Assembly: GCA_029865385.1 (NCBI GenBank)
Contig: JAOUGX010000017.1
Span: 1-53,010 of the forward strand
Source of the DNA: Gammaproteobacteria bacterium
GTDB lineage: Bacteria > Pseudomonadota > Gammaproteobacteria > Steroidobacterales > Woeseiaceae
Length of the DNA stretch: 53,010 nucleotides
Direction of reading: 5' to 3'
In this document: one piece after another, positions 40,646 through 48,884 of the stretch
Numbering within the stretch: the stretch's first letter is position 1
Layout: every line of letters begins with the position of its first letter
The notes under the pieces: model-generated
The model's input: the letters and a program-made list of their open reading frames with translations, nothing else
What the model was told of the DNA's origin: nothing
Databases searched by the model: none
Made by a program: the position numbers and the translations under genes

Positions 40646-41899
40646 ATGACTGACATCGGTGACCTGCCGGTAGCAGGCAATGGTCTTTTGAATCGACGCC
40701 TGTTTCTGCAGGCGGGCGCTGCAGGTGCTGCAACAATCATGACGGCACAGGCTTCGGCGCAGGACCAGCCGGACTCGATGCGGATACCGGGCGCGGGCAT
40801 GAGCGAGAGCGGCGCGCCGTCCCGCTACGAATCGGAATTGTATCGGCGTGCAATTGCATCACAGCCTGGTACGACCGGTGCCGGAGTGTCTCGAACTCCC
40901 CTAGAACATCTCGACGGCATCATCACGCCGAGCCGCCTGCATTTCGAAAGACATCACAGTGGCATACCGGACATCGATCCCGGCCGTCACAGGTTGATCA
41001 TCCACGGATTGGTCAAACGCCCGCTTTCGTTCAGCATGGATGCGCTGGCGCGTTACCCGAGCGTTTCGCGCATCCAGTTCCTGGAATGCTCGGGCAACAG
41101 CGGCGCACTGCTCTCGGCAGAACCCGTACAGAGCGGCTGCGGCGAATTGCACGGGCTGGTCTCCGCCAGCGAATGGGGCGGTGTTCCGCTGTCTGCACTG
41201 CTGGCGGAAACCGGCGTAACAGCAAATGCCAGGTGGATTGTTGCGTCGGGTGCGGATGCGGCCAAAATGAGTCGCAGCGTGCCACTGGACAAGATCATGG
41301 ACGATGCAATCGTTGCGCTTTACCAGAACGGCGAACCACTGCGGCCCGCCAATGGTTATCCGATGCGGCTGTTCCTTCCCGGCTGGGAAGGCAACATGAG
41401 CGTGAAGTGGTTGCACACGATCAAGGTCGTTGACCAGCCGGCAATGACAAAAGACGAAACCTCAAAGTACTCCGATTTGCAGGACGACGGTGACCTGCAA
41501 CTCTTTACATTTCCGATGGCTGTGAAGTCGGTGATTACGAGCCCTTCGCCGGGACTGAATCTCGGGAGCACCGGTATATACCAGGTCTCCGGCATTGCTT
41601 GGAGCGGCGCCGGCAGGATTCGCCGCGTGGAGGTTTCTGCGGACGGCGGCGAGAGCTGGGCTGACGCCGCGCTGGATGAACTCGTTCTGCCGCACTGCCT
41701 GACGCGCTTCCGTTCGGCGTGGGCGTGGAACGGCGGTCCCGCCGTTATCTTAAGCCGGGCAACTGATGAGGCTGGCAATGTGCAGCCGACACGCGCCGCT
41801 GTACTTGAAGGTCGTGCCGTAGGCACTTTCTATCACTACAACGGAATACAGGCGTGGCAGGTCAATCGCGACGGGAGCGTAAACAATGTCTATGTATAG
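40646..41899 (+). CDS. soxC: Sulfite dehydrogenase-like molybdopterin subunit SoxC
   Basis: A 417-residue Moco oxidoreductase of the sulfite oxidase family. It begins with a signal-anchor-like segment (N-R-R-L-F-L-Q-A-G-A-A-G-A, a possible Tat motif), then S-R-T-P-L-E-H-L-D-G-I-I-T-P-S-R-L-H-F-E-R-H-H. The Mo-ligating Cys148 lies in Q-F-L-E-C-S-G-N-S, and the dimerisation domain follows (P-G-L-N-L-G). SoxC with SoxD forms the sulfur dehydrogenase of thiosulfate oxidation (established knowledge). GGGGGAGG precedes the start. It overlaps the next cytochrome gene by 14 bases, the classic soxC-soxD arrangement. The other sox genes are not within this window. Confidence 0.93.
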   Translation: MTDIGDLPVAGNGLLNRRLFLQAGAAGAATIMTAQASAQDQPDSMRIPGAGMSESGAPSRYESELYRRAIASQPGTTGAGVSRTPLEHLDGIITPSRLHFERHHSGIPDIDPGRHRLIIHGLVKRPLSFSMDALARYPSVSRIQFLECSGNSGALLSAEPVQSGCGELHGLVSASEWGGVPLSALLAETGVTANARWIVASGADAAKMSRSVPLDKIMDDAIVALYQNGEPLRPANGYPMRLFLPGWEGNMSVKWLHTIKVVDQPAMTKDETSKYSDLQDDGDLQLFTFPMAVKSVITSPSPGLNLGSTGIYQVSGIAWSGAGRIRRVEVSADGGESWADAALDELVLPHCLTRFRSAWAWNGGPAVILSRATDEAGNVQPTRAAVLEGRAVGTFYHYNGIQAWQVNRDGSVNNVYV

Positions 41900-42452: not shown

Positions 42453-43613
42453 CTAGTTGCCGAATCCGATGCATGCCGCCTGCGCGATTCCGGGCACGGT
42501 TTGCATGTATTCCTCTTTTGTGGGCAAACCCGCGTTGCACCGCATACCGACCCTCAGCGATACAATTTCAATGCCGCCTCCCGAGGCCATTTTTTCGAAC
42601 ATTTCCAGTTGCGGGCCCATTTGCGCCATGATCATGTTGCGCTGAGCTTCCGTCAGGCCGGACATCTGCGTTTGGAACTCCGCCAGTTGCTGCTGCGCCT
42701 CTGCCATTTGTGCCTGTTCTTCGGCATTCATCACGCCGGAGATTCGCATGACGCTGCGCATCGGCTCGTACAGCGATCCGCAGCCGGGCCTGGTTTCGTA
42801 AGCCATGTCCTCACGTTCGATGCGCATTGCACGTGATTCGCCTCCATCGGTGGCAATGCCGTCCATCTGCATCTTCAATGGCACGTACTTTTCCGAATCT
42901 ATCCACAGGTGCAGCGTATCTAATGTGAACTCCTGGTTGTTCGCCGTTTGCACCTGGTCCAGATCCTCTGCGACGAGATAGATTGCCGGCCGGTTTCTTA
43001 GGGTGTCGTGGCCTGCGATTCTCGTGCGCTCCGCAATGGAGGCCAATCGATCCTGTTTGGCTTCCTGCTCTGCCTGCTCCGCGAGCCTGGCATTTTCTCT
43101 TTTACCTGCCGCGGCGCCTTCGAGCATCATCGCGTAATTTTCCATCATGTCGCCCGGCATCGGCGACAGCCAGGGTTTGTCCGCAGGCGGATTCGACAGC
43201 ATGGTACTCAATGTGCCTGGGACACCGATGGTCTGCATCTCGTTTCGCACGGCCTGGTCCATCCTCGGCCCCTGCTGGCGCAATACGTCGGCGGCATGTT
43301 CGAGGTCTTCAGGCGAAGCCTGCGAGAATGGAGAATCCGGCGAATCTCTTTCCATGACTTCGCTGATCGGAACCATACGCATGTACTCAATGGTGCCGCC
43401 ACCATCCGCGGATTCTGTCGATTCCTTTTCAAAATGCTCCAGCGTGCACATGCCCATGGAGGTTTTCATCACGCTGAAATTTTCAATGCCGCTAAGGCTG
43501 GCGCGCTTGCGGCTCTCCATTTCCTGAAATATCTCTGCCGGCGTTTCGGCGGCTGAGCCAACCGACGTGAAGAAAACGCTGCAGGACAAGATGACCCGGG
43601 TAAGTATTCGCAT
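42453..43613 (-). CDS. Secreted Met/Gln-rich protein of unknown function
   Basis: A 386-residue exported protein I cannot assign. The signal peptide (M-R-I-L-T-R-V-I-L-S-C-S-V-F-F-T...) ends near S-A-A, residue ~22. Mid-protein helical segments rich in Ala, Gln, Glu and Met (A-E-Q-A-E-Q-E-A-K, A-E-A-Q-Q-Q-L-A-E-F-Q-T-Q-M) suggest coiled coil. Between them is a beta-rich stretch with L-H-L-W-I-D, resembling outer-membrane lipoprotein-sorting (LolA-like) regions. Four Cys residues may form disulfides. I preferred ATG 43613 because AACGGAGG lies nine bases upstream; 43649 would add a polar tail in front of the signal. It converges on soxD. Confidence 0.75.
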   Translation of the reverse strand: MRILTRVILSCSVFFTSVGSAAETPAEIFQEMESRKRASLSGIENFSVMKTSMGMCTLEHFEKESTESADGGGTIEYMRMVPISEVMERDSPDSPFSQASPEDLEHAADVLRQQGPRMDQAVRNEMQTIGVPGTLSTMLSNPPADKPWLSPMPGDMMENYAMMLEGAAAGKRENARLAEQAEQEAKQDRLASIAERTRIAGHDTLRNRPAIYLVAEDLDQVQTANNQEFTLDTLHLWIDSEKYVPLKMQMDGIATDGGESRAMRIEREDMAYETRPGCGSLYEPMRSVMRISGVMNAEEQAQMAEAQQQLAEFQTQMSGLTEAQRNMIMAQMGPQLEMFEKMASGGGIEIVSLRVGMRCNAGLPTKEEYMQTVPGIAQAACIGFGN

Positions 43614-43825
43614 GAGTACGTTCCTCCGTTTCTTTTTTGTTCCGGTCATGATACCCGGATTGCCGCGGAATTTTCAGGAGATCCCCGCGGCTGGGCCAGT
43701 GCAAGTCCCGCGTGTGGCGGTGTTCTGGTGTGCAAAGTGATAGCCGGCACAAACCTGATCGCTATACTTTAGAATGAGTGGATCAATTCGACTGCGCTGA
43801 ACGTCCTTTAACAAGGCAGATGATC
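43614..43825. promoter_or_regulatory. Divergent intergenic region before the desaturase-type gene
   Basis: This 212-base gap lies between divergent genes. A TATACT -10-like hexamer is at 43763-43768, upstream of the desaturase start, but no convincing -35 is seen at the right distance. No palindrome or other gene was recognised. In the first ~60 bases there is only the ribosome binding site of the minus-strand gene. Confidence 0.35.
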
Positions 43826-44488
43826 ATGTCCCGGAATTCCGTCGAGTACTCGCGCGAAGCATTTCGCCGGAAATACGTTTCGCCGAACTACTCCGGCCCT
43901 CTGCATCTCGCGACCACCGTAAGTATCTGTCTTGTCGTTGCGCTGTTATGCGCCGTGATGTTGGAAAACGTCCAGCCCCTCGAGTGGCTGACCATTCCAT
44001 TGACATTTCTCTACGCCAATTTAAGCGAGTACCTCGGCCACCGCGGGCCGATGCATCATCGGAAACCGCTGCTCTCGGCCGTATTCCAGCGCCACACGAT
44101 CGAGCACCATGCGTTCTTCACCGATCAGGCCATAAGCTATGAATCCAGCAAGGATTTCAAAGCCGTGCTGTTTCCGCCAATACTCCTGTTCTTTTTCATC
44201 GGAGCATTCGCAGTACCCGCAGGCGCTCTTTTATTTTTCCTTGTAAGCGCCAACGTTGCGTTTCTGTTTATGTTGACCGCCGTGCTGTACTTCCTCAACT
44301 ACGAACTGCTGCACTTTGCCTACCACGTGCGTCCGTCATCATGGATAGGCCGCCTGCCCTTCATGAGCCGCCTGCGACAGCACCACGCACATCACCACAA
44401 TCCACAATTGATGACCCGATACAATTTCAACATCACTTATCCATTGTGTGACTATTTCTTTGGCACGGTATACAAGAATCCCAAATAG
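43826..44488 (+). CDS. Fatty acid hydroxylase/sterol desaturase-type membrane enzyme
   Basis: A ~220-residue integral membrane di-iron enzyme. Histidine boxes run H-R-G-P-M-H-H, H-T-I-E-H-H and R-Q-H-H-A-H-H-H-N, with an extra H-F-A-Y-H, and four membrane helices lie between. This matches the fatty acid hydroxylase superfamily, which inserts hydroxyl groups or double bonds into lipids using O2. The frame is open to GTG 43778 and ATG 43820; ATG 43826 has AAGG nine bases upstream. A diverged duplicate of its last ~38 codons is found at 47448-47570, on the far side of the TIR gene. Confidence 0.85.
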   Translation: MSRNSVEYSREAFRRKYVSPNYSGPLHLATTVSICLVVALLCAVMLENVQPLEWLTIPLTFLYANLSEYLGHRGPMHHRKPLLSAVFQRHTIEHHAFFTDQAISYESSKDFKAVLFPPILLFFFIGAFAVPAGALLFFLVSANVAFLFMLTAVLYFLNYELLHFAYHVRPSSWIGRLPFMSRLRQHHAHHHNPQLMTRYNFNITYPLCDYFFGTVYKNPK

Positions 44489-44569
44489 CTGCAAGCATGT
44501 CCGCAGCCCACGGATACACAGCTTGAAGCCTTGCAGCACCGCATGCGCCAGCGGGCAAAAGGGACACCC

Positions 44570-44804
44570 ATGTCACGACATGCATGGACAGTTGTTTTGT
44601 TCTGCCTGGTGCTCGCCGCCTGAGACCGCGGTTCCTCCGGCAGCGGCGGCCTGCAACCGGTCACCATAGTCCTCGTCGGTCTCGAGCCCCTCACCAGTGC
44701 AACGGCGACGGGTAAGTTCCGCAACAATAGACTATCGCGTTTCTGTGGCAAAATAGCGGACGGCGCCAAGGCTGCAGCTTTAGCTTCACCGACGGGAGCG
44801 TTAA
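44570..44804 (+). pseudogene. Possible lipoprotein gene broken at its lipobox codon
   Basis: A good ribosome binding site (AAAAGGGA) precedes ATG 44570. This encodes M-S-R-H-A-W-T-V-V-L-F-C-L-V-L-A-A and then TGA (44621), exactly where a lipobox Cys (TGC) would be expected. The frame stays open afterward (D-R-G-S-S-G-S-G-G-L-Q-P-V...) past 44804. So this 316-base gap holds a leader that looks like a lipoprotein with a Cys-to-stop change. Alternatively it is only a short translated leader for the TIR gene. No family is recognised in the tail. Confidence 0.35.
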
Positions 44805-47435
44805 TTGGACAAGCCTTTTCCAGCCTACGACGGGGACGGGCCTTATGTGTTCGTTTGTTACGCGCACGATGATTCAAGGATCGTGTACCCGGAGATCCTG
44901 TGGCTGCGGGATCAGGGCATCAATATCTGGTACGACGAGGGCATCAGTCCGGGTGCGGAGTTTCCCGAGAAGCTCGGCAAAGCGATTCTCGGCGCAAGCC
45001 TGGTACTTTTCTACGTAAGCCCGACTTCGGTGAATTCGCGCCATTGTCGCGACGAAGTGTATTTCGGGATCGACAAAAACATACCGGTACTCGCGTCGCA
45101 CATCGCCGCAACAGAAATGCCGCCGGGACTTGCGATGTCGACCGGTACAACGCAAGCACTCATGCGTTACGAGATACGGCAGAAAAATTATCGCAGGAAA
45201 CTGCTTGCCGGCGTAAAACTTCTGAGTGAGTCGCCGGACTATTTCGACCTGGCTTCGATTTCCGCTGAAGCACCTACGTTGCTTTCTGCTTTGTCCCGAT
45301 ACGCGATCCCCGTGTCCCTGCTGGCACTGGTCTCGGTCGCTTCATTTGCCGTTTTTGAGTTCAAACGGTATCTCGATCACGAGGCCGATGTTCGCTGGGC
45401 GAAAGACGAGCTCCTGCCGGAAATCAGAAGCCAACTGGAAGTGAACTGGGGCGACTTTACGGAAACGTATGACCTGGCGCTACAGGCGGAGGAGATCATC
45501 CCGGACGACCCGGGCCTTGCCGACATCTTTGAAACCATATCGATGCGCATCGACATCGACTCGGATCCACCAGGTGCCGACGTTTTCATGAAAGACTATC
45601 GCAGCCCCGAGGAGCAGTGGAGACGGCTGGGCGTTACACCTGTCACGAGCATCCGTGTCCCGGTTGGCGTCTTCCGCTGGAAGTTCGTCAAAGAAGGCTA
45701 TGAGACCGTCACCGCGGCGGCGTCTTCCTGGGACATCAGCCTGAGCGGCAAGATGACCAACAAGGAGCTGCTGCACCCGAACAACATATTCAGAAAGCTG
45801 GACAGGATCGGTGAGCTCCCGCCGGGCACAGTCCGCGTCGCCGGCACAGCAACCCCGCAGGGCGAAGTACGGGACTTCTTCATCGACCGCTACGAGGTGA
45901 CCAACGGCAAATTTCAGAAATTCGTCCAGGCCGGTGCATACAGGAACAAGGATTACTGGCGGCACGACTTCGTCGAGGACGGCGAGGTAATCAGCTGGGA
46001 GGAAGGGATTTCCCGCTTCGTCGATAGCACCGGACGGCCGGGCCCGAGTTCCTGGCTCGGCGGCACATATCCCGACGGAACGGAGAATTATCCGGTCTCC
46101 GGCGTGAGCTGGTACGAAGCCGCCGCGTACGCCGAGTACGCCGGCAAATCGCTGCCAACAGGCATGCACTGGGGAGTAGCGCGAGGCGAGTACTCGCCGC
46201 TCATTCAGTTCCCGCAGCTGGGCGGTTTCGCGCTGTTCGCGCCGTTCAGCAACTTTCGTGGTAAAGGCACTGTCGAGGTGGGCAGTCTGCCGGGCGTCAC
46301 AGCGTACGGCACCTACGATCTCGCCGGAAACGTTCGTGAATGGTGTTCGAACGATACGGCGATGGGCAAGTTGGTGCGGGGCGGATCATTCAGCGACAAC
46401 CCGTATCGATTCTCCGAGTTGAGCCAGGCACCGCCGATGTTCCGCGGCCCGGACTACGGGTTCCGGACGGTCGTCTACCCGGGCGGTCTGAACGTACCCG
46501 AAGCTGCGTTTACAGCCGTTCCGATCAATCCGGCGACGGACTGGTACGACCACGAAGTGGTCTCCGACGAGATCTTCGAAGTTTTCCTGCGCCAGTACGA
46601 TTTCGACGATCTGGATCTGAATGTCCGACAGGAATCGCTGGATAACAGCTCCGAATTATGGACGGTCGAGCGCGTCTCGGTCGATACGCCCTACGGCGAT
46701 GAACGGATGATCATCAACCTGTTCCTGCCGAAAACTTCGGAACCGCCTTTTCAGACCGTCATTTATTTTCCGGGCAGCGCGTCCCTGTTCAAGGAGTCGA
46801 GCAAGGACATCGACCAGTACTACGAATACCCGGTATTCCTGTCATTCCTCGTCAAGACCGGCCGCGCGGTCGCCTACCCCGTTTACAAGGGCACTTTCGA
46901 GCGGCGCGACGACAGGCTGCTGGCAATCCACATGGGCACTAACACTTACCAGTACAGCGAGTTTCTGACTCAGCTGGTGAAAGACTTTCGCCGCACGATC
47001 GATTACCTGGAGACGCGACCGGACATCGACGGAGAGCGACTGGCTTTTTACGGCATGAGCTGGGGCGCCGTCATGGGCGCGATCATTCCTGCCGTCGAGA
47101 CCAGGCCGAAGACCGCCATCATCCTTGCCGGCGGTATCTACGAGGCCGGCCTCCCGGAAGTAAGCCCGATCAACTACGCACCCCGAATAACGATGCCGTT
47201 TCTGATGATGGTCGGGCGATACGATTCGATCGTCGATCAAGAGGCTTCCGCAAAACCGCTGTTCGACCTGATCGGCACTCCGGAGGAGCACAAAGTCCTG
47301 AAAATATACGAGACCGATCACATCCCGCCGAAGAGCGAATACATTTCGGAGATGCTGGCCTGGCTCGACCTGTATCTCGGGCCGGTCGACAAAGCCGCGG
47401 CAACACCTGCAACAGTGTCCCCGGGAGCTTATTGA
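44805..47435 (+). CDS. TIR-TM-PEGA-FGE/SUMF1-hydrolase fusion protein
   Basis: An 876-residue, multi-domain membrane protein. Residues ~10-135 are a TIR domain (Y-V-F-V-C-Y-A-H-D-D-S, I-W-Y-D-E-G-I-S-P-G, and S-R-H-C-R-D-E-V, where the Glu matches the NADase catalytic position). One membrane helix (~166-185) follows. Residues ~245-310 form a PEGA-like fold (S-D-P-P-G-A-D-V). An FGE/SUMF1 domain spans ~338-560 (F-I-D-R-Y-E-V-T-N-G, D-L-A-G-N-V-R-E-W, R-G-G-S-F), but its usual catalytic Cys pair is missing. A C-terminal alpha/beta hydrolase (~620-860) has Ser752 in G-M-S-W-G-A, with G-R-Y-D-S and T-D-H-I-P. TTG start after GGGAG. The kinase-FGE-hydrolase type of protein is the nearest known layout; here TIR replaces the kinase (inference). 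Confidence 0.82.
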   Translation: MDKPFPAYDGDGPYVFVCYAHDDSRIVYPEILWLRDQGINIWYDEGISPGAEFPEKLGKAILGASLVLFYVSPTSVNSRHCRDEVYFGIDKNIPVLASHIAATEMPPGLAMSTGTTQALMRYEIRQKNYRRKLLAGVKLLSESPDYFDLASISAEAPTLLSALSRYAIPVSLLALVSVASFAVFEFKRYLDHEADVRWAKDELLPEIRSQLEVNWGDFTETYDLALQAEEIIPDDPGLADIFETISMRIDIDSDPPGADVFMKDYRSPEEQWRRLGVTPVTSIRVPVGVFRWKFVKEGYETVTAAASSWDISLSGKMTNKELLHPNNIFRKLDRIGELPPGTVRVAGTATPQGEVRDFFIDRYEVTNGKFQKFVQAGAYRNKDYWRHDFVEDGEVISWEEGISRFVDSTGRPGPSSWLGGTYPDGTENYPVSGVSWYEAAAYAEYAGKSLPTGMHWGVARGEYSPLIQFPQLGGFALFAPFSNFRGKGTVEVGSLPGVTAYGTYDLAGNVREWCSNDTAMGKLVRGGSFSDNPYRFSELSQAPPMFRGPDYGFRTVVYPGGLNVPEAAFTAVPINPATDWYDHEVVSDEIFEVFLRQYDFDDLDLNVRQESLDNSSELWTVERVSVDTPYGDERMIINLFLPKTSEPPFQTVIYFPGSASLFKESSKDIDQYYEYPVFLSFLVKTGRAVAYPVYKGTFERRDDRLLAIHMGTNTYQYSEFLTQLVKDFRRTIDYLETRPDIDGERLAFYGMSWGAVMGAIIPAVETRPKTAIILAGGIYEAGLPEVSPINYAPRITMPFLMMVGRYDSIVDQEASAKPLFDLIGTPEEHKVLKIYETDHIPPKSEYISEMLAWLDLYLGPVDKAAATPATVSPGAY

Positions 47436-47447
47436 CACGTCATACTG

Positions 47448-47570
47448 TATTCCAGGTACCGCAGGCCGATGCATCACCACAACTCCAGTCTGATGACCCG
47501 CTACAATTTCAACATTACCTATCCACTGTGCGACCACCTGTTCGGCACCGTGTACAGGAGTGTGGAATAG
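47448..47570 (+). pseudogene. 3' remnant of a second desaturase-type gene
   Basis: The + strand reads S-R-Y-R-R-P-M-H-H-H-N-S-S-L-M-T-R-Y-N-F, then N-I-T-Y-P-L-C-D-H-L-F-G-T-V-Y-R and a TAG. It matches the last ~38 residues of the enzyme at 43826-44488 (H-A-H-H-H-N-P-Q-L-M-T-R-Y-N-F; N-I-T-Y-P-L-C-D-Y-F-F-G-T-V-Y-K). Many differences are at third codon positions, so this is a diverged paralogue, not a fresh copy. No 5' part remains; it starts right behind the TIR gene stop. Confidence 0.85.
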
Positions 47571-47593
47571 TTGCGAAAGTGAATGCCCGACGC

Positions 47594-48094
47594 TCAGTGC
47601 AAAGCTGATCGGTCGGGATTCCGACGGATCCAAAGCAGCTGCAGGCTGACTCCGACCAGGAACAGGATTAACAGCGCCAGGTAGAGTATTCTGAAAACCG
47701 GATCTTCTATGGACTTGAGAACGGGGTTGCCAACCGGCAGACGCAACAGGCCATCGGTTACCGCGGGGATGGAATGGAAGAGCAAGGTTGCCGAGTAACT
47801 GATCGCCTGCACCTGTCGTGACCATTTGCCGAACGCCTTTACAGTTGCAGCAAGCGTCCCGACCGCTAACGCAAGCAGGGTCATCACAGCCAGCGCATGA
47901 CCCGGGCCGAATTCGCCGCGTTGAAAAATGGCCAGGGCCGTGCCCGCAGTCAACAAGGTTGTCGTCAGATAAACCTGTCCCGACCGTGTATGCAGCAGGA
48001 TTTCCTTGAATCTGGCCAGCGTAAAGCCCCCGCTCAAAAGGGCAACGGCACCCATGACCGTGTGAAGCCAGCCCAGCGGAATGATCTCGGGCAT
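47594..48094 (-). CDS. Small multi-helix membrane protein
   Basis: A 166-residue inner membrane protein with about four hydrophobic helices (residues ~8-27, 42-58, 65-85 and 132-154) and short loops. His residues occur at W-L-H-T-V-M, G-P-G-H-A-L and F-H-S-I-P, at helix ends. This layout and the H-T-R-S-G-Q-V-Y turn resemble DUF2306-like membrane proteins; assignment is weak. AGGA a few bases before the ATG supports the start. It points toward the desaturase remnant and stands 59 bases from the methyltransferase gene on the same strand, so they may be co-transcribed. Confidence 0.7.
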   Translation of the reverse strand: MPEIIPLGWLHTVMGAVALLSGGFTLARFKEILLHTRSGQVYLTTTLLTAGTALAIFQRGEFGPGHALAVMTLLALAVGTLAATVKAFGKWSRQVQAISYSATLLFHSIPAVTDGLLRLPVGNPVLKSIEDPVFRILYLALLILFLVGVSLQLLWIRRNPDRSALH

Positions 48095-48152
48095 AAGGAA
48101 TCCTCGTTTCTATTGTCGGGGCGATGCTAGCAGGAATATCCCCGCTTATTCC

Positions 48153-48884
48153 CTATCTTTCCTCGCGTATTAGCGGGACGAAACGAACCGCGATGACATT
48201 CTTGACGATCAGCAGGCCATCCGAATTCTTTGTCAGTACCTGCAGCACTTGCACTTCACCCTCCGCACCTACCGGGATGACCATGCGTCCGCCAACTGCA
48301 AGCTGCTCTATCAGCGGTTGCGGAATATTCTCGGGCGCAGCCGTTACCAGAATTGCGTCAAACGGCGCCTGATCGGGCCAGCCTGCGTAACCATCGCCTA
48401 TTCTGACCGTGACGTTATTGTAACCAAGGCGATCCAGGACACTCTTTGCACGCTGACCGAGCATTTCGATGATTTCTATCGTGTAGACGTGACCCGCCAA
48501 CTCGGACAGAACTGCAGCCTGGTATCCGGAGCCGGTACCGACCTCCAGCACGACATCGTCCTTCGTCACTTCGGCAAGGTCGGTCATCAACGCAACAATG
48601 TAGGGTTGGGAAATTGTCTGCCCGGCACCAATCGGCAATGGCCGGTTCTCGTATGCGTAACGTTTTTGATCGTCGGGCACGAACTCGTGCCGCGGCACCC
48701 GTCCGAGTACCTCCAGCGTTTGGTCACTGATGCGCGGCGCACCATATTCCTCGGTCAATCGGGACTCGTTGCGCAGCTCGTCGACCATCGCTTGCCGCTC
48801 TGACTCGTAATTCATCTGTCCACAGGCACTATTGAGACCGAGACCGGATGCTATCAGCAACAGAACTCCAGAGAATCGGGGCAT
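48153..48884 (-). CDS. pcm: Protein-L-isoaspartate O-methyltransferase, exported as lipoprotein
   Basis: PCMT methylates L-isoaspartyl residues so that damaged proteins can be repaired. The core carries V-P-R-H-E-F-V-P, P-L-P-I-G-A-G-Q-T-I-S-Q-P, the SAM-binding V-L-E-V-G-T-G-S-G-Y-Q-A and the late D-A-I-L-V-T-A-A-P-E. Unusually it has an N-terminal signal peptide ending N-S-A-C-G-Q, which looks like a lipobox, so it would reach the periplasm or outer membrane. SAM is a cytoplasmic cofactor, making that odd. ATG 48884 has GGAG eight bases upstream and is preferred over 48911. Length without the signal is ~220, as usual. Confidence 0.88.
   Translation of the reverse strand: MPRFSGVLLLIASGLGLNSACGQMNYESERQAMVDELRNESRLTEEYGAPRISDQTLEVLGRVPRHEFVPDDQKRYAYENRPLPIGAGQTISQPYIVALMTDLAEVTKDDVVLEVGTGSGYQAAVLSELAGHVYTIEIIEMLGQRAKSVLDRLGYNNVTVRIGDGYAGWPDQAPFDAILVTAAPENIPQPLIEQLAVGGRMVIPVGAEGEVQVLQVLTKNSDGLLIVKNVIAVRFVPLIREER

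What the first reader, a model, noticed from the sequence alone, without database searches (positions are those of the whole stretch)
44805..47435. TIR-TM-PEGA-FGE-hydrolase fusion: possible new signalling or defence protein
A cytoplasmic TIR domain that keeps the NADase-position Glu is tied by one membrane helix to PEGA, FGE-like and alpha/beta-hydrolase domains outside. The FGE part lacks the usual Cys pair, suggesting ligand binding rather than catalysis. The layout parallels kinase-FGE proteins with TIR in place of the kinase, so outside sensing could trigger NAD depletion or immune signalling.
Basis: partly seen in the sequence, partly recalled or inferred. Interest (0 to 1): 0.75.

Follow-up and report, generated by a model that had tools for sequence, protein, structure and literature searches.

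The report
Membrane TIR protein with esterase ectodomain
A bacterial gene joins an immune-type TIR domain inside the cell to a binding-type and an esterase-like domain outside it, and relatives carry the same outside part on a kinase or a DNA-binding domain, so it looks like a receptor whose inner signalling part has been swapped in evolution.

Summary
In detail: 44805-47435 (+) is one intact 876-aa ORF, TIR - one membrane helix - PEGA-like - FGE/SUMF1-like - alpha/beta-hydrolase. It is a real gene: shared start site, and purifying selection in every domain against an 82%-identical copy in another genus. It is not unique. A homologous ~670-aa ectodomain was found in 31 sequences (28 complete enough for a tree) on five kinds of N-terminus: two distant TIRs, Ser/Thr kinase, winged-helix domain, and a multi-TM anchor with or without an extra part. 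In one genus a kinase form is 81-85% identical in the ectodomain to two anchor forms. What it missed: the hydrolase keeps Ser-Asp-His in 29 of 29 sequences that reach it and resembles family-7 acetyl esterases, so the outside part is probably an enzyme or enzyme-derived sensor. Defence is not supported: no defence operon or shared neighbour was found. NADase activity is open: the Glu is present but is common in non-enzymatic TIRs too, and the ligand-contacting Trp position is His. Best reading: a modular single-span envelope sensor/esterase with TIR as output. New variant of a known kind.

The parts
44794..44798 (+). Shine-Dalgarno-like GGGAG, 6 nt before the TTG start
   Evidence: sequence; similar G-rich site before the same TTG in L003 and L077
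44805..47435 (+). whole ORF, 876 aa, TTG start
   Evidence: purifying selection against the G004 copy
44832..45239 (+). TIR domain (aa 10-145), predicted cytoplasmic; Glu84 codon 45054-45056, His80 four residues before it
   Evidence: Pfam TIR_2 5e-13; model of aa 1-188 matches solved TIRs at Z 13-15
45300..45356 (+). single transmembrane helix (aa 166-184)
   Evidence: hydropathy 2.12, next best segment in the protein 1.54; long helix 160-213 in the model
45357..45539 (+). helical neck (aa 185-245)
   Evidence: model
45540..45728 (+). PEGA-like beta domain (aa 246-308)
   Evidence: Pfam PEGA 0.0085 here, under cut-off; 8 of 17 homologues at E up to 1
45816..46484 (+). FGE/SUMF1-EgtB-like domain (aa 338-560), no FGE-type Cys pair
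   Evidence: Pfam FGE-sulfatase 1e-26; EgtB 4x8b Z 22.4, rmsd 2.4, 205 aligned, 27% identity
46617..47384 (+). alpha/beta-hydrolase (aa 605-860), Ser752 (47058-47060), Asp807 (47223-47225), His839 (47319-47321)
   Evidence: family-7 acetyl esterase 5fdf Z 26.0, rmsd 2.9, 265 aligned; triad kept in 29 of 29
44390..44492 (+). 3' end of the fatty-acid-hydroxylase-like gene, left copy of a direct repeat flanking the TIR gene
   Evidence: 75% ungapped over 103 nt; 80% over 89 nt
47472..47574 (+). 3' remnant of a second hydroxylase-like gene, right copy of the same repeat

Best explanation
A single-span inner-membrane signalling protein. The TIR domain is in the cytoplasm; the PEGA-like, FGE-like and esterase domains are outside the cytoplasmic membrane. 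The outside part binds and probably cleaves an ester-bearing envelope or environmental compound. Ligand state or crowding is passed through the helical neck and membrane helix and changes TIR-TIR assembly, which gives the cytoplasmic signal, either by NAD+ cleavage/cyclisation or as a docking scaffold. The TIR is one of several exchangeable outputs on this ectodomain. Shown: the domains, the homologous ectodomain on different N-termini, the conserved triad, purifying selection. Inferred: topology (odd number of membrane segments in most forms, with kinase or DNA-binding N-termini that must be inside) and signalling. Guess: the ligand and the TIR chemistry.
For: Same ectodomain on TIR, Pkinase, Trans_reg_C and multi-TM anchors (Pfam on 10 proteins; sets). 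In genus code g70 the kinase form L040 has an ectodomain 85% and 81% identical to the anchor forms L039 and L108. L038 and L035: TIRs 58%, ectodomains 38%; L035 and L032: TIRs 58%, ectodomains 81%, so the parts have separate histories. In the ectodomain tree the six N-terminal labels need 7 changes (5 is the least; two rows labelled '?' left out). One membrane segment before the ectodomain in 9 of 9 TIR, 3 of 3 kinase and 3 of 3 winged-helix forms, three in 13 of 15 anchor forms: same parity. Triad 29 of 29. Fold matches. Selection on both halves.
Against: Thirteen of the 31 sequences have only a multi-TM anchor and no recognisable cytoplasmic output, so the ectodomain may work without signalling. 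Labels are clustered on the tree (9 changes for seven labels against a shuffled mean of 14.9), so swaps are not frequent. Two anchor forms break the parity by the hydropathy rule (L006 two, L105 four). Positive charges beside the query's membrane helix point the other way: 1 K/R on the N side, 3 on the C side. No output partner gene was found and no ligand is known.
Confidence: 0.6

Rival explanations
1. Anchored envelope esterase: the hydrolase plus FGE-like binding domain is the working part (for example deacetylating glycans or detoxifying esters), and the N-terminal module is only an anchor or a clustering/localising device.
For: Triad 29 of 29; family-7 acetyl esterase fold Z 25-26; 13 of 31 ectodomains sit on a multi-TM anchor without recognisable output, four of them (L004, L005, L008, L010) beside an aspS-like gene (gene named by recall).
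Against: Kinase, DNA-binding domain and two kinds of TIR have been put at the same place, and the TIR is under as strong selection as the hydrolase (dN/dS 0.11 each, one pair).
Confidence: 0.25
2. Abortive-infection defence protein: envelope damage or phage contact outside triggers the TIR to deplete NAD+ and kill the cell.
For: The Glu is kept in 18 of 18 TIR sequences compared (17 different; placed by eye in the f10 type); the TIR model matches NADases (RUN1 14.8, SPARTA 14.2, SARM1 14.1); patchy occurrence, 2 of 107 family genomes, and different surroundings in G000 and G004.
Against: No recognisable defence operon: 57 chosen neighbours from 9 loci gave 27 PADLOC families (25 shown), each in one member, by name mostly helicase-type (one, 'mad2' at 5e-25, was not traced to its gene). 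Other outputs on the ectodomain are kinase and transcription regulator. The position four before the Glu is His, not the Trp described as ligand-binding in SARM1. The fold list does not separate enzymes from non-enzymes.
Confidence: 0.1
3. A sub-version of the best reading: the TIR is a non-enzymatic docking domain that recruits another TIR or TPR protein, and Glu84 is structural.
For: Single-sequence matches among solved structures: after a repeat protein that looks spurious (8frf, 2e-4) come TLR15 (0.006), a TIR-SAVED protein (0.008) and TLR6 (0.018); TLR1/2/6/10 TIRs keep this Glu (PMC7075850); top fold row is a Hydra Toll-related receptor (Z 15.2, tied with plant NADase TIRs); the query's TIR is closest to that of a TPR protein (46% to L016).
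Against: No partner is encoded beside the gene; only one other TIR_2 locus was found in the own genome. The profile search ranks TLR6 second and AbTIR, an NADase, fifth with nearly equal scores.
Confidence: 0.3

Closest known systems
Kinase-SUMF1/FGE receptor-like proteins (here L040, L041, L076)
   Same: single membrane helix followed by a homologous neck-PEGA-FGE-hydrolase ectodomain (33-40% identity over about 670 aa)
   Different: Ser/Thr kinase instead of TIR at the N-terminus (L040, L076 by Pfam; L041 by similarity)
CadC-like one-component regulators (wHTH-TM-ectodomain; name recalled), here L042 and L014
   Same: cytoplasmic output - TM - homologous ectodomain
   Different: Trans_reg_C DNA-binding output
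TIR-TPR proteins of related bacteria (L016 by Pfam; L046 and own-genome L124 by eye)
   Same: nearest TIR domains outside the close relatives (L016 46% identity)
   Different: TPR region instead of PEGA-FGE-hydrolase; no membrane helix seen by eye in L016
Toll-like receptors
   Same: one membrane span, TIR predicted inside, binding part outside
   Different: reverse order (TIR N-terminal here), no leucine-rich repeats, an enzyme-like ectodomain
FGE/CLec domains in bacterial conflict systems and DGR targets (PMC7159879, PMC10907252, passages)
   Same: FGE-type fold and TIR effectors occur in the same systems
   Different: there with STAND NTPases, vWA-MoxR or variable repeats; here the TIR is joined through a membrane helix to FGE plus hydrolase
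Family-7 carbohydrate esterases (acetyl xylan esterase / cephalosporin C deacetylase)
   Same: hydrolase fold, Z 25-26, rmsd about 3, about 265 aligned, 17% identity; other alpha/beta-hydrolases follow at Z 22-23; Ser-Asp-His present
   Different: fused to a membrane signalling protein; substrate unknown

Membership tests
TIR domain | TIR_2 profile above curated cut-off and TIR fold | tested here: met
   50.0 bits against 28; Z up to 15.2, rmsd 2.9, 123 aligned; a non-TIR nucleotide hydrolase (8rps) also reaches Z 12.8
TIR NADase | catalytic Glu in helix alpha-C | tested here: met
   Glu84, kept in 18 of 18 TIRs compared (17 different); not specific for enzymes
TIR NADase | Trp four residues before the Glu (W71 and E75 in the numbering of PMC7075850, described there as ligand-binding in SARM1) | tested here: not met
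   His80 in the three close TIRs, Tyr in the f10 TIRs, Trp in L082 and in the own genome's other TIR
TIR NADase | NAD+ cleavage | not testable with these tools
   needs an enzyme assay
Known TIR anti-phage systems (Thoeris, CBASS and the like) | close match to a system's TIR profile with partner genes beside it | tested here: not met
   best PADLOC E 6e-5 for the TIR alone; 57 chosen neighbours from 9 loci without a recognisable system (which member gave each match is not shown)
Formylglycine-generating enzyme | active-site Cys pair in the C-terminal GGS-tail (motif recalled) | tested here: not met
   no Cys pair in that stretch in 31 of 31 sequences
EgtB sulfoxide synthase | NCBIfam equivalog cut-off, whole enzyme | tested here: not met
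   TIGR03440 61 bits against 360, only aa 354-514
Alpha/beta-hydrolase, serine esterase | Ser-Asp-His triad on the fold | tested here: met
   Ser752, Asp807, His839; 29 of 29 sequences that reach them; fold; activity not tested
Carbohydrate esterase family 7 | AXE1 profile | tested here: inconclusive
   AXE1 matches 4 of 17 members, best 0.026, and is not in the query's own list; fold match strong
PEGA domain | profile above cut-off | tested here: inconclusive
   16.4 bits against 20.8 here; 8 of 17 members match at E up to 1
Toll-like receptor | LRR ectodomain, C-terminal TIR | tested here: not met
   domain order and content

The most novel reading that the evidence does not exclude
A bacterial counterpart of a Toll-type receptor: an extracytoplasmic esterase/lectin-fold ectodomain reads an ester-bearing ligand and gates a cytoplasmic TIR NAD+-cleaving enzyme, and the same receptor ectodomain has been re-wired in evolution to kinase, transcription-factor and two separate TIR outputs.
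Probability: 0.22. Interest if true: 0.8.

Novelty: new variant of a known kind. Interest (0 to 1): 0.52.

Why it matters
Bacterial TIR work known to me (recall) concerns mostly soluble defence effectors. This family offers TIR domains physically tied to an outside part, with natural swap experiments already made by evolution (same ectodomain on kinase, DNA-binding domain or TIR). That makes the question 'can a bacterial TIR act as a transmembrane signalling output' directly testable, and the conserved esterase triad gives a handle for finding the ligand.

Tried and rejected
Defence island: not supported. By blastp (E up to 1e-10, ORFs picked by length) the neighbours of the TIR forms share nothing across the loci compared, apart from the family's own genes and other TIR or kinase proteins. 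Of 57 neighbours that I chose by eye from 9 loci, 27 PADLOC families matched, each in one member (25 shown; best 'mad2' 5e-25, not traced to its gene; by name mostly helicase-type).

Phage or plasmid origin: plasmid matches to the whole protein cover at most 27% of it and, where annotated, are SUMF1-family enzymes (10 records); the TIR alone matches 2 plasmid records at about 30%; one phage record matches the TIR at 36% over 111 aa; a scan of viral contigs with the TIR alignment gave 61 pattern matches and no confirmed relative.

Diversity-generating retroelement link (suggested by FGE-type CLec targets, PMC10907252): not searched for specifically; the repeat list of 43600-48200 was not examined for it in detail.

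Empty-site test: of nine window proteins only PCMT itself matches in the fetched stretches around the best PCMT relatives of G008, G006 and G004. The G008 contig is only 6.9 kb and starts at that gene, and the other two are 54% identical and may be paralogues, so no empty site could be shown.

Single origin of TIR-FGE: the TIRs of the query group and of the f10 group as one clade are rejected only weakly (AU p 0.03, long branches), while the ectodomain tree puts five f10 TIR forms beside the query at 91/92. Two captures or a TIR-for-TIR replacement both remain possible.

Wider sampling: the class search (369 genomes, E up to 1e-12, two candidates scored per genome) gave only matches to the FGE region besides the own gene; the phylum search (398 genomes, E up to 1e-40, three candidates scored) found the ectodomain only in the own genome. 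These are samples, not all genomes. The one genome-contig scan reaches close relatives only (2 loci). Acidobacterial genomes could not be searched as a group.

Structural search: the full-length lists are filled by hydrolase and EgtB folds, so the neck and PEGA part were not tested for fold. Superposition with NAD-bound TIRs was not possible.

Literature, listings only unless stated (listed of found): searches (20 of 25; 15 of 1,597; 15 of 18; 12 of 24), 71 'FGE-sulfatase + TIR' (1 of 1, on caspase homologues, passages read), 72 'Woeseiaceae + TIR domain' (0; the family name was my guess), 76 (0), 86 (6 of 40), 87 (8 of 19). None of the listed titles or passages read (PMC7159879, PMC10907252, PMC3501461, PMC7075850, PMC13142454, PMC5177608) describes this architecture; subscription papers are not covered. 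A kinase-FGE protein of Chlamydia (Pkn1, recalled) was looked up in PMC5177608 and the passages do not mention an FGE domain, so I do not use it.

Full report
What is there. The ORF at 44805-47435 (+) is intact: 876 aa, TTG start right after an in-frame TAA, with GGGAG six bases upstream. The same start with a similar G-rich site is found in both relatives that have this kind of TIR: L003 from genome G004 (82% identical over the full length) and L077 (gammaproteobacterial MAG SZUA-228, 65% in the stretch available, cut by its contig end). Between the window and G004, dN/dS is 0.11 in the TIR, 0.26 in the membrane helix and neck, 0.13 in PEGA, 0.12 in FGE, 0.11 in the hydrolase, and 0.48 in the 19-residue linker. 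Every domain is therefore maintained, judged from this one pair.

Domains. Pfam gives TIR_2 (5e-13), FGE-sulfatase (1e-26) and DLH-type hydrolase (1.7e-4); PEGA is below cut-off here and is matched by 8 of 17 homologues at E up to 1. The AlphaFold model built on 30 rows has mean pLDDT 84.2. The hydrolase matches family-7 acetyl esterases at Z 25-26 (rmsd about 3, about 265 aligned), ahead of other alpha/beta-hydrolases at 22-23, and the FGE part matches EgtB at Z 22.4 (rmsd 2.4, 205 aligned, 27% identity). A separate TIR model (pLDDT 77.6) matches solved TIRs at Z 13-15, enzymes (RUN1, SPARTA, SARM1) and non-enzymes (Toll-related receptor, IL-1RAcPb, MyD88) alike; a non-TIR nucleotide hydrolase at rank 50 reaches 12.8. 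The FGE tail has no Cys pair in 31 of 31 sequences, while Ser752-Asp807-His839 of the hydrolase is intact in 29 of 29 sequences that reach it. So the FGE part is probably not catalytic in the FGE sense, but the hydrolase probably is.

Relatives. In the own family 13 of 107 genomes carry nearly the whole ectodomain (a 14th, G014, a partial one); only the window's genome and G004 have it behind a TIR (sequences). In family f10, 13 of 200 genomes have it: seven behind a different TIR (G332, G277, G299, G390, G306, G338, G784), two behind a kinase (G376, G388), two behind a winged helix (G272, G775) and two behind a multi-TM anchor with an extra region that I take by eye for TolB-like (G369, G770). 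Pfam was run on one or two of each kind; the others were assigned by sequence similarity, and the TolB-like region gave no Pfam match. An acidobacterial MAG (L076) has the kinase form. The commonest form in the own family is a multi-TM anchor, either with a motif near ELKRRKVxRV (for example L004) or of a related kind near SLWxVLGIY (L006, L007, L104; also L036 of family f4); L004, L036 and L039 have no Pfam match there. Of the 31 sequences: 2 query-type TIR, 7 f10-type TIR, 3 kinase, 3 winged helix, 13 anchor, 2 anchor plus TolB-like, and 1 (L015) anchor-like without the hydrolase. L077 is not among the 31 because its ectodomain is cut off.

Module exchange. In genus code g70 the ectodomain of L040 (kinase) is 85% and 81% identical to those of L039 and L108 (anchor plus TolB-like), so the N-terminus was exchanged recently. 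L038 and L035 have TIRs 58% identical but ectodomains 38% identical, whereas L035 and L032 have TIRs 58% and ectodomains 81%. In the ectodomain tree L038, a long branch, sits with the acidobacterial kinase form (99/96) and the five other f10 TIR forms in the tree sit beside the query (91/92, not starred). The labels are clustered on the tree (9 changes for seven labels including '?', least 6, shuffled mean 14.9; 7 changes without '?'), so swaps are real but not frequent. The query's TIR is nearest, outside its close relatives, to that of a TIR-TPR protein (L016, 46%) and only 26-30% identical to three f10 TIRs over 77-100 residues; holding the two TIR groups together is rejected only at p 0.03.

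Topology. By a simple hydropathy rule, all 15 TIR, kinase and winged-helix forms measured have one membrane segment before the ectodomain; 13 of 15 anchor forms have three (L006 two, L105 four). Kinase and DNA-binding domains must be in the cytoplasm, so an odd number of segments puts the ectodomain outside. Charges beside the query's own helix do not support this (1 K/R on the N side, 3 on the C side).

Surroundings. Left: sulfite dehydrogenase SoxC (40646-41899), cytochrome c, a 398-aa protein without a family, and a fatty-acid-hydroxylase-like gene. Right: a DUF2306-like membrane protein (weak match), a PCMT, an ORF without a family, and an FG-GAP/Calx-beta protein. None has a defence annotation and none is shared with the other TIR loci by blastp. 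The gene is flanked by the 3' end of the hydroxylase-like gene (44390-44492) and a remnant of a second copy (47472-47574), and in G004 it lies among unrelated genes. No match at E up to 0.001 was found in the two same-genus genomes G007 and G008 (85% and 67% complete). These facts suggest it was gained or moved, though its GC (58.2%) equals that of the window (58.7%).

How it probably works. An outside esterase/lectin-fold unit with a membrane helix and exchangeable cytoplasmic module is best read as a signalling receptor or sensor-enzyme. The TIR is then the output, through NAD+ chemistry or docking. The presence of Glu84 does not decide this: PMC7075850 (passages read) reports this Glu in more than 70% of all TIRs and over 90% of TLR1/2/6/10 TIRs, and describes W71 as ligand-binding in SARM1, a position that is His80 here. 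That 13 of 31 relatives lack any recognisable cytoplasmic output keeps the plain-esterase rival alive.

Known or new. FGE-type domains and TIRs occur together in bacterial conflict systems (PMC7159879 and PMC10907252, passages only), and kinase or wHTH proteins with the same ectodomain exist in genomes, but the open-library searches listed under Tried and rejected showed no description of TIR-TM-PEGA-FGE-hydrolase among the rows listed. I file it as a new variant of modular single-span bacterial signalling proteins.

Noticed in passing
window 44390-44492 and 47472-47574: Direct repeat flanking the TIR gene: the 3' end of the intact fatty-acid-hydroxylase-like gene and a decayed second copy (80% over 89 nt), a possible trace of how the TIR gene came in.
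   Followed up: partly
L039, L108 against L040: In one genus code (g70), ectodomains 81-85% identical carry either a Ser/Thr kinase or a multi-TM anchor plus TolB-like region (by eye): a recent output swap.
   Followed up: partly
L004, L005, L008, L010: The anchor form of the ectodomain gene lies beside an aspartyl-tRNA-synthetase-like gene (named by recall from its sequence) in these four loci, a conserved place in the family.
   Followed up: no
L004, L005, L008-L013 (ELKRR motif); L006, L007, L036, L104 (SLWxVLGIY-like): N-terminal multi-TM regions of two related kinds; no Pfam match in L004, L036 and L039. L039 and L108 add a further region that looks TolB-like.
   Followed up: no
L043, L044: Short proteins that end after a TIR and one hydrophobic segment (order relatives, f11): TIR-TM without any ectodomain.
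   Followed up: no
L124 (own genome C2, minus strand, contig end): The only other TIR_2 locus found in the own genome: TIR, hydrophobic segment, then a region that looks TolB-like and TPR-like by eye; 658-aa frame cut at the contig end.
   Followed up: partly
L014, L042: Winged-helix (Trans_reg_C) versions of the same ectodomain, i.e. candidate membrane-bound transcription regulators with an esterase sensor.
   Followed up: partly
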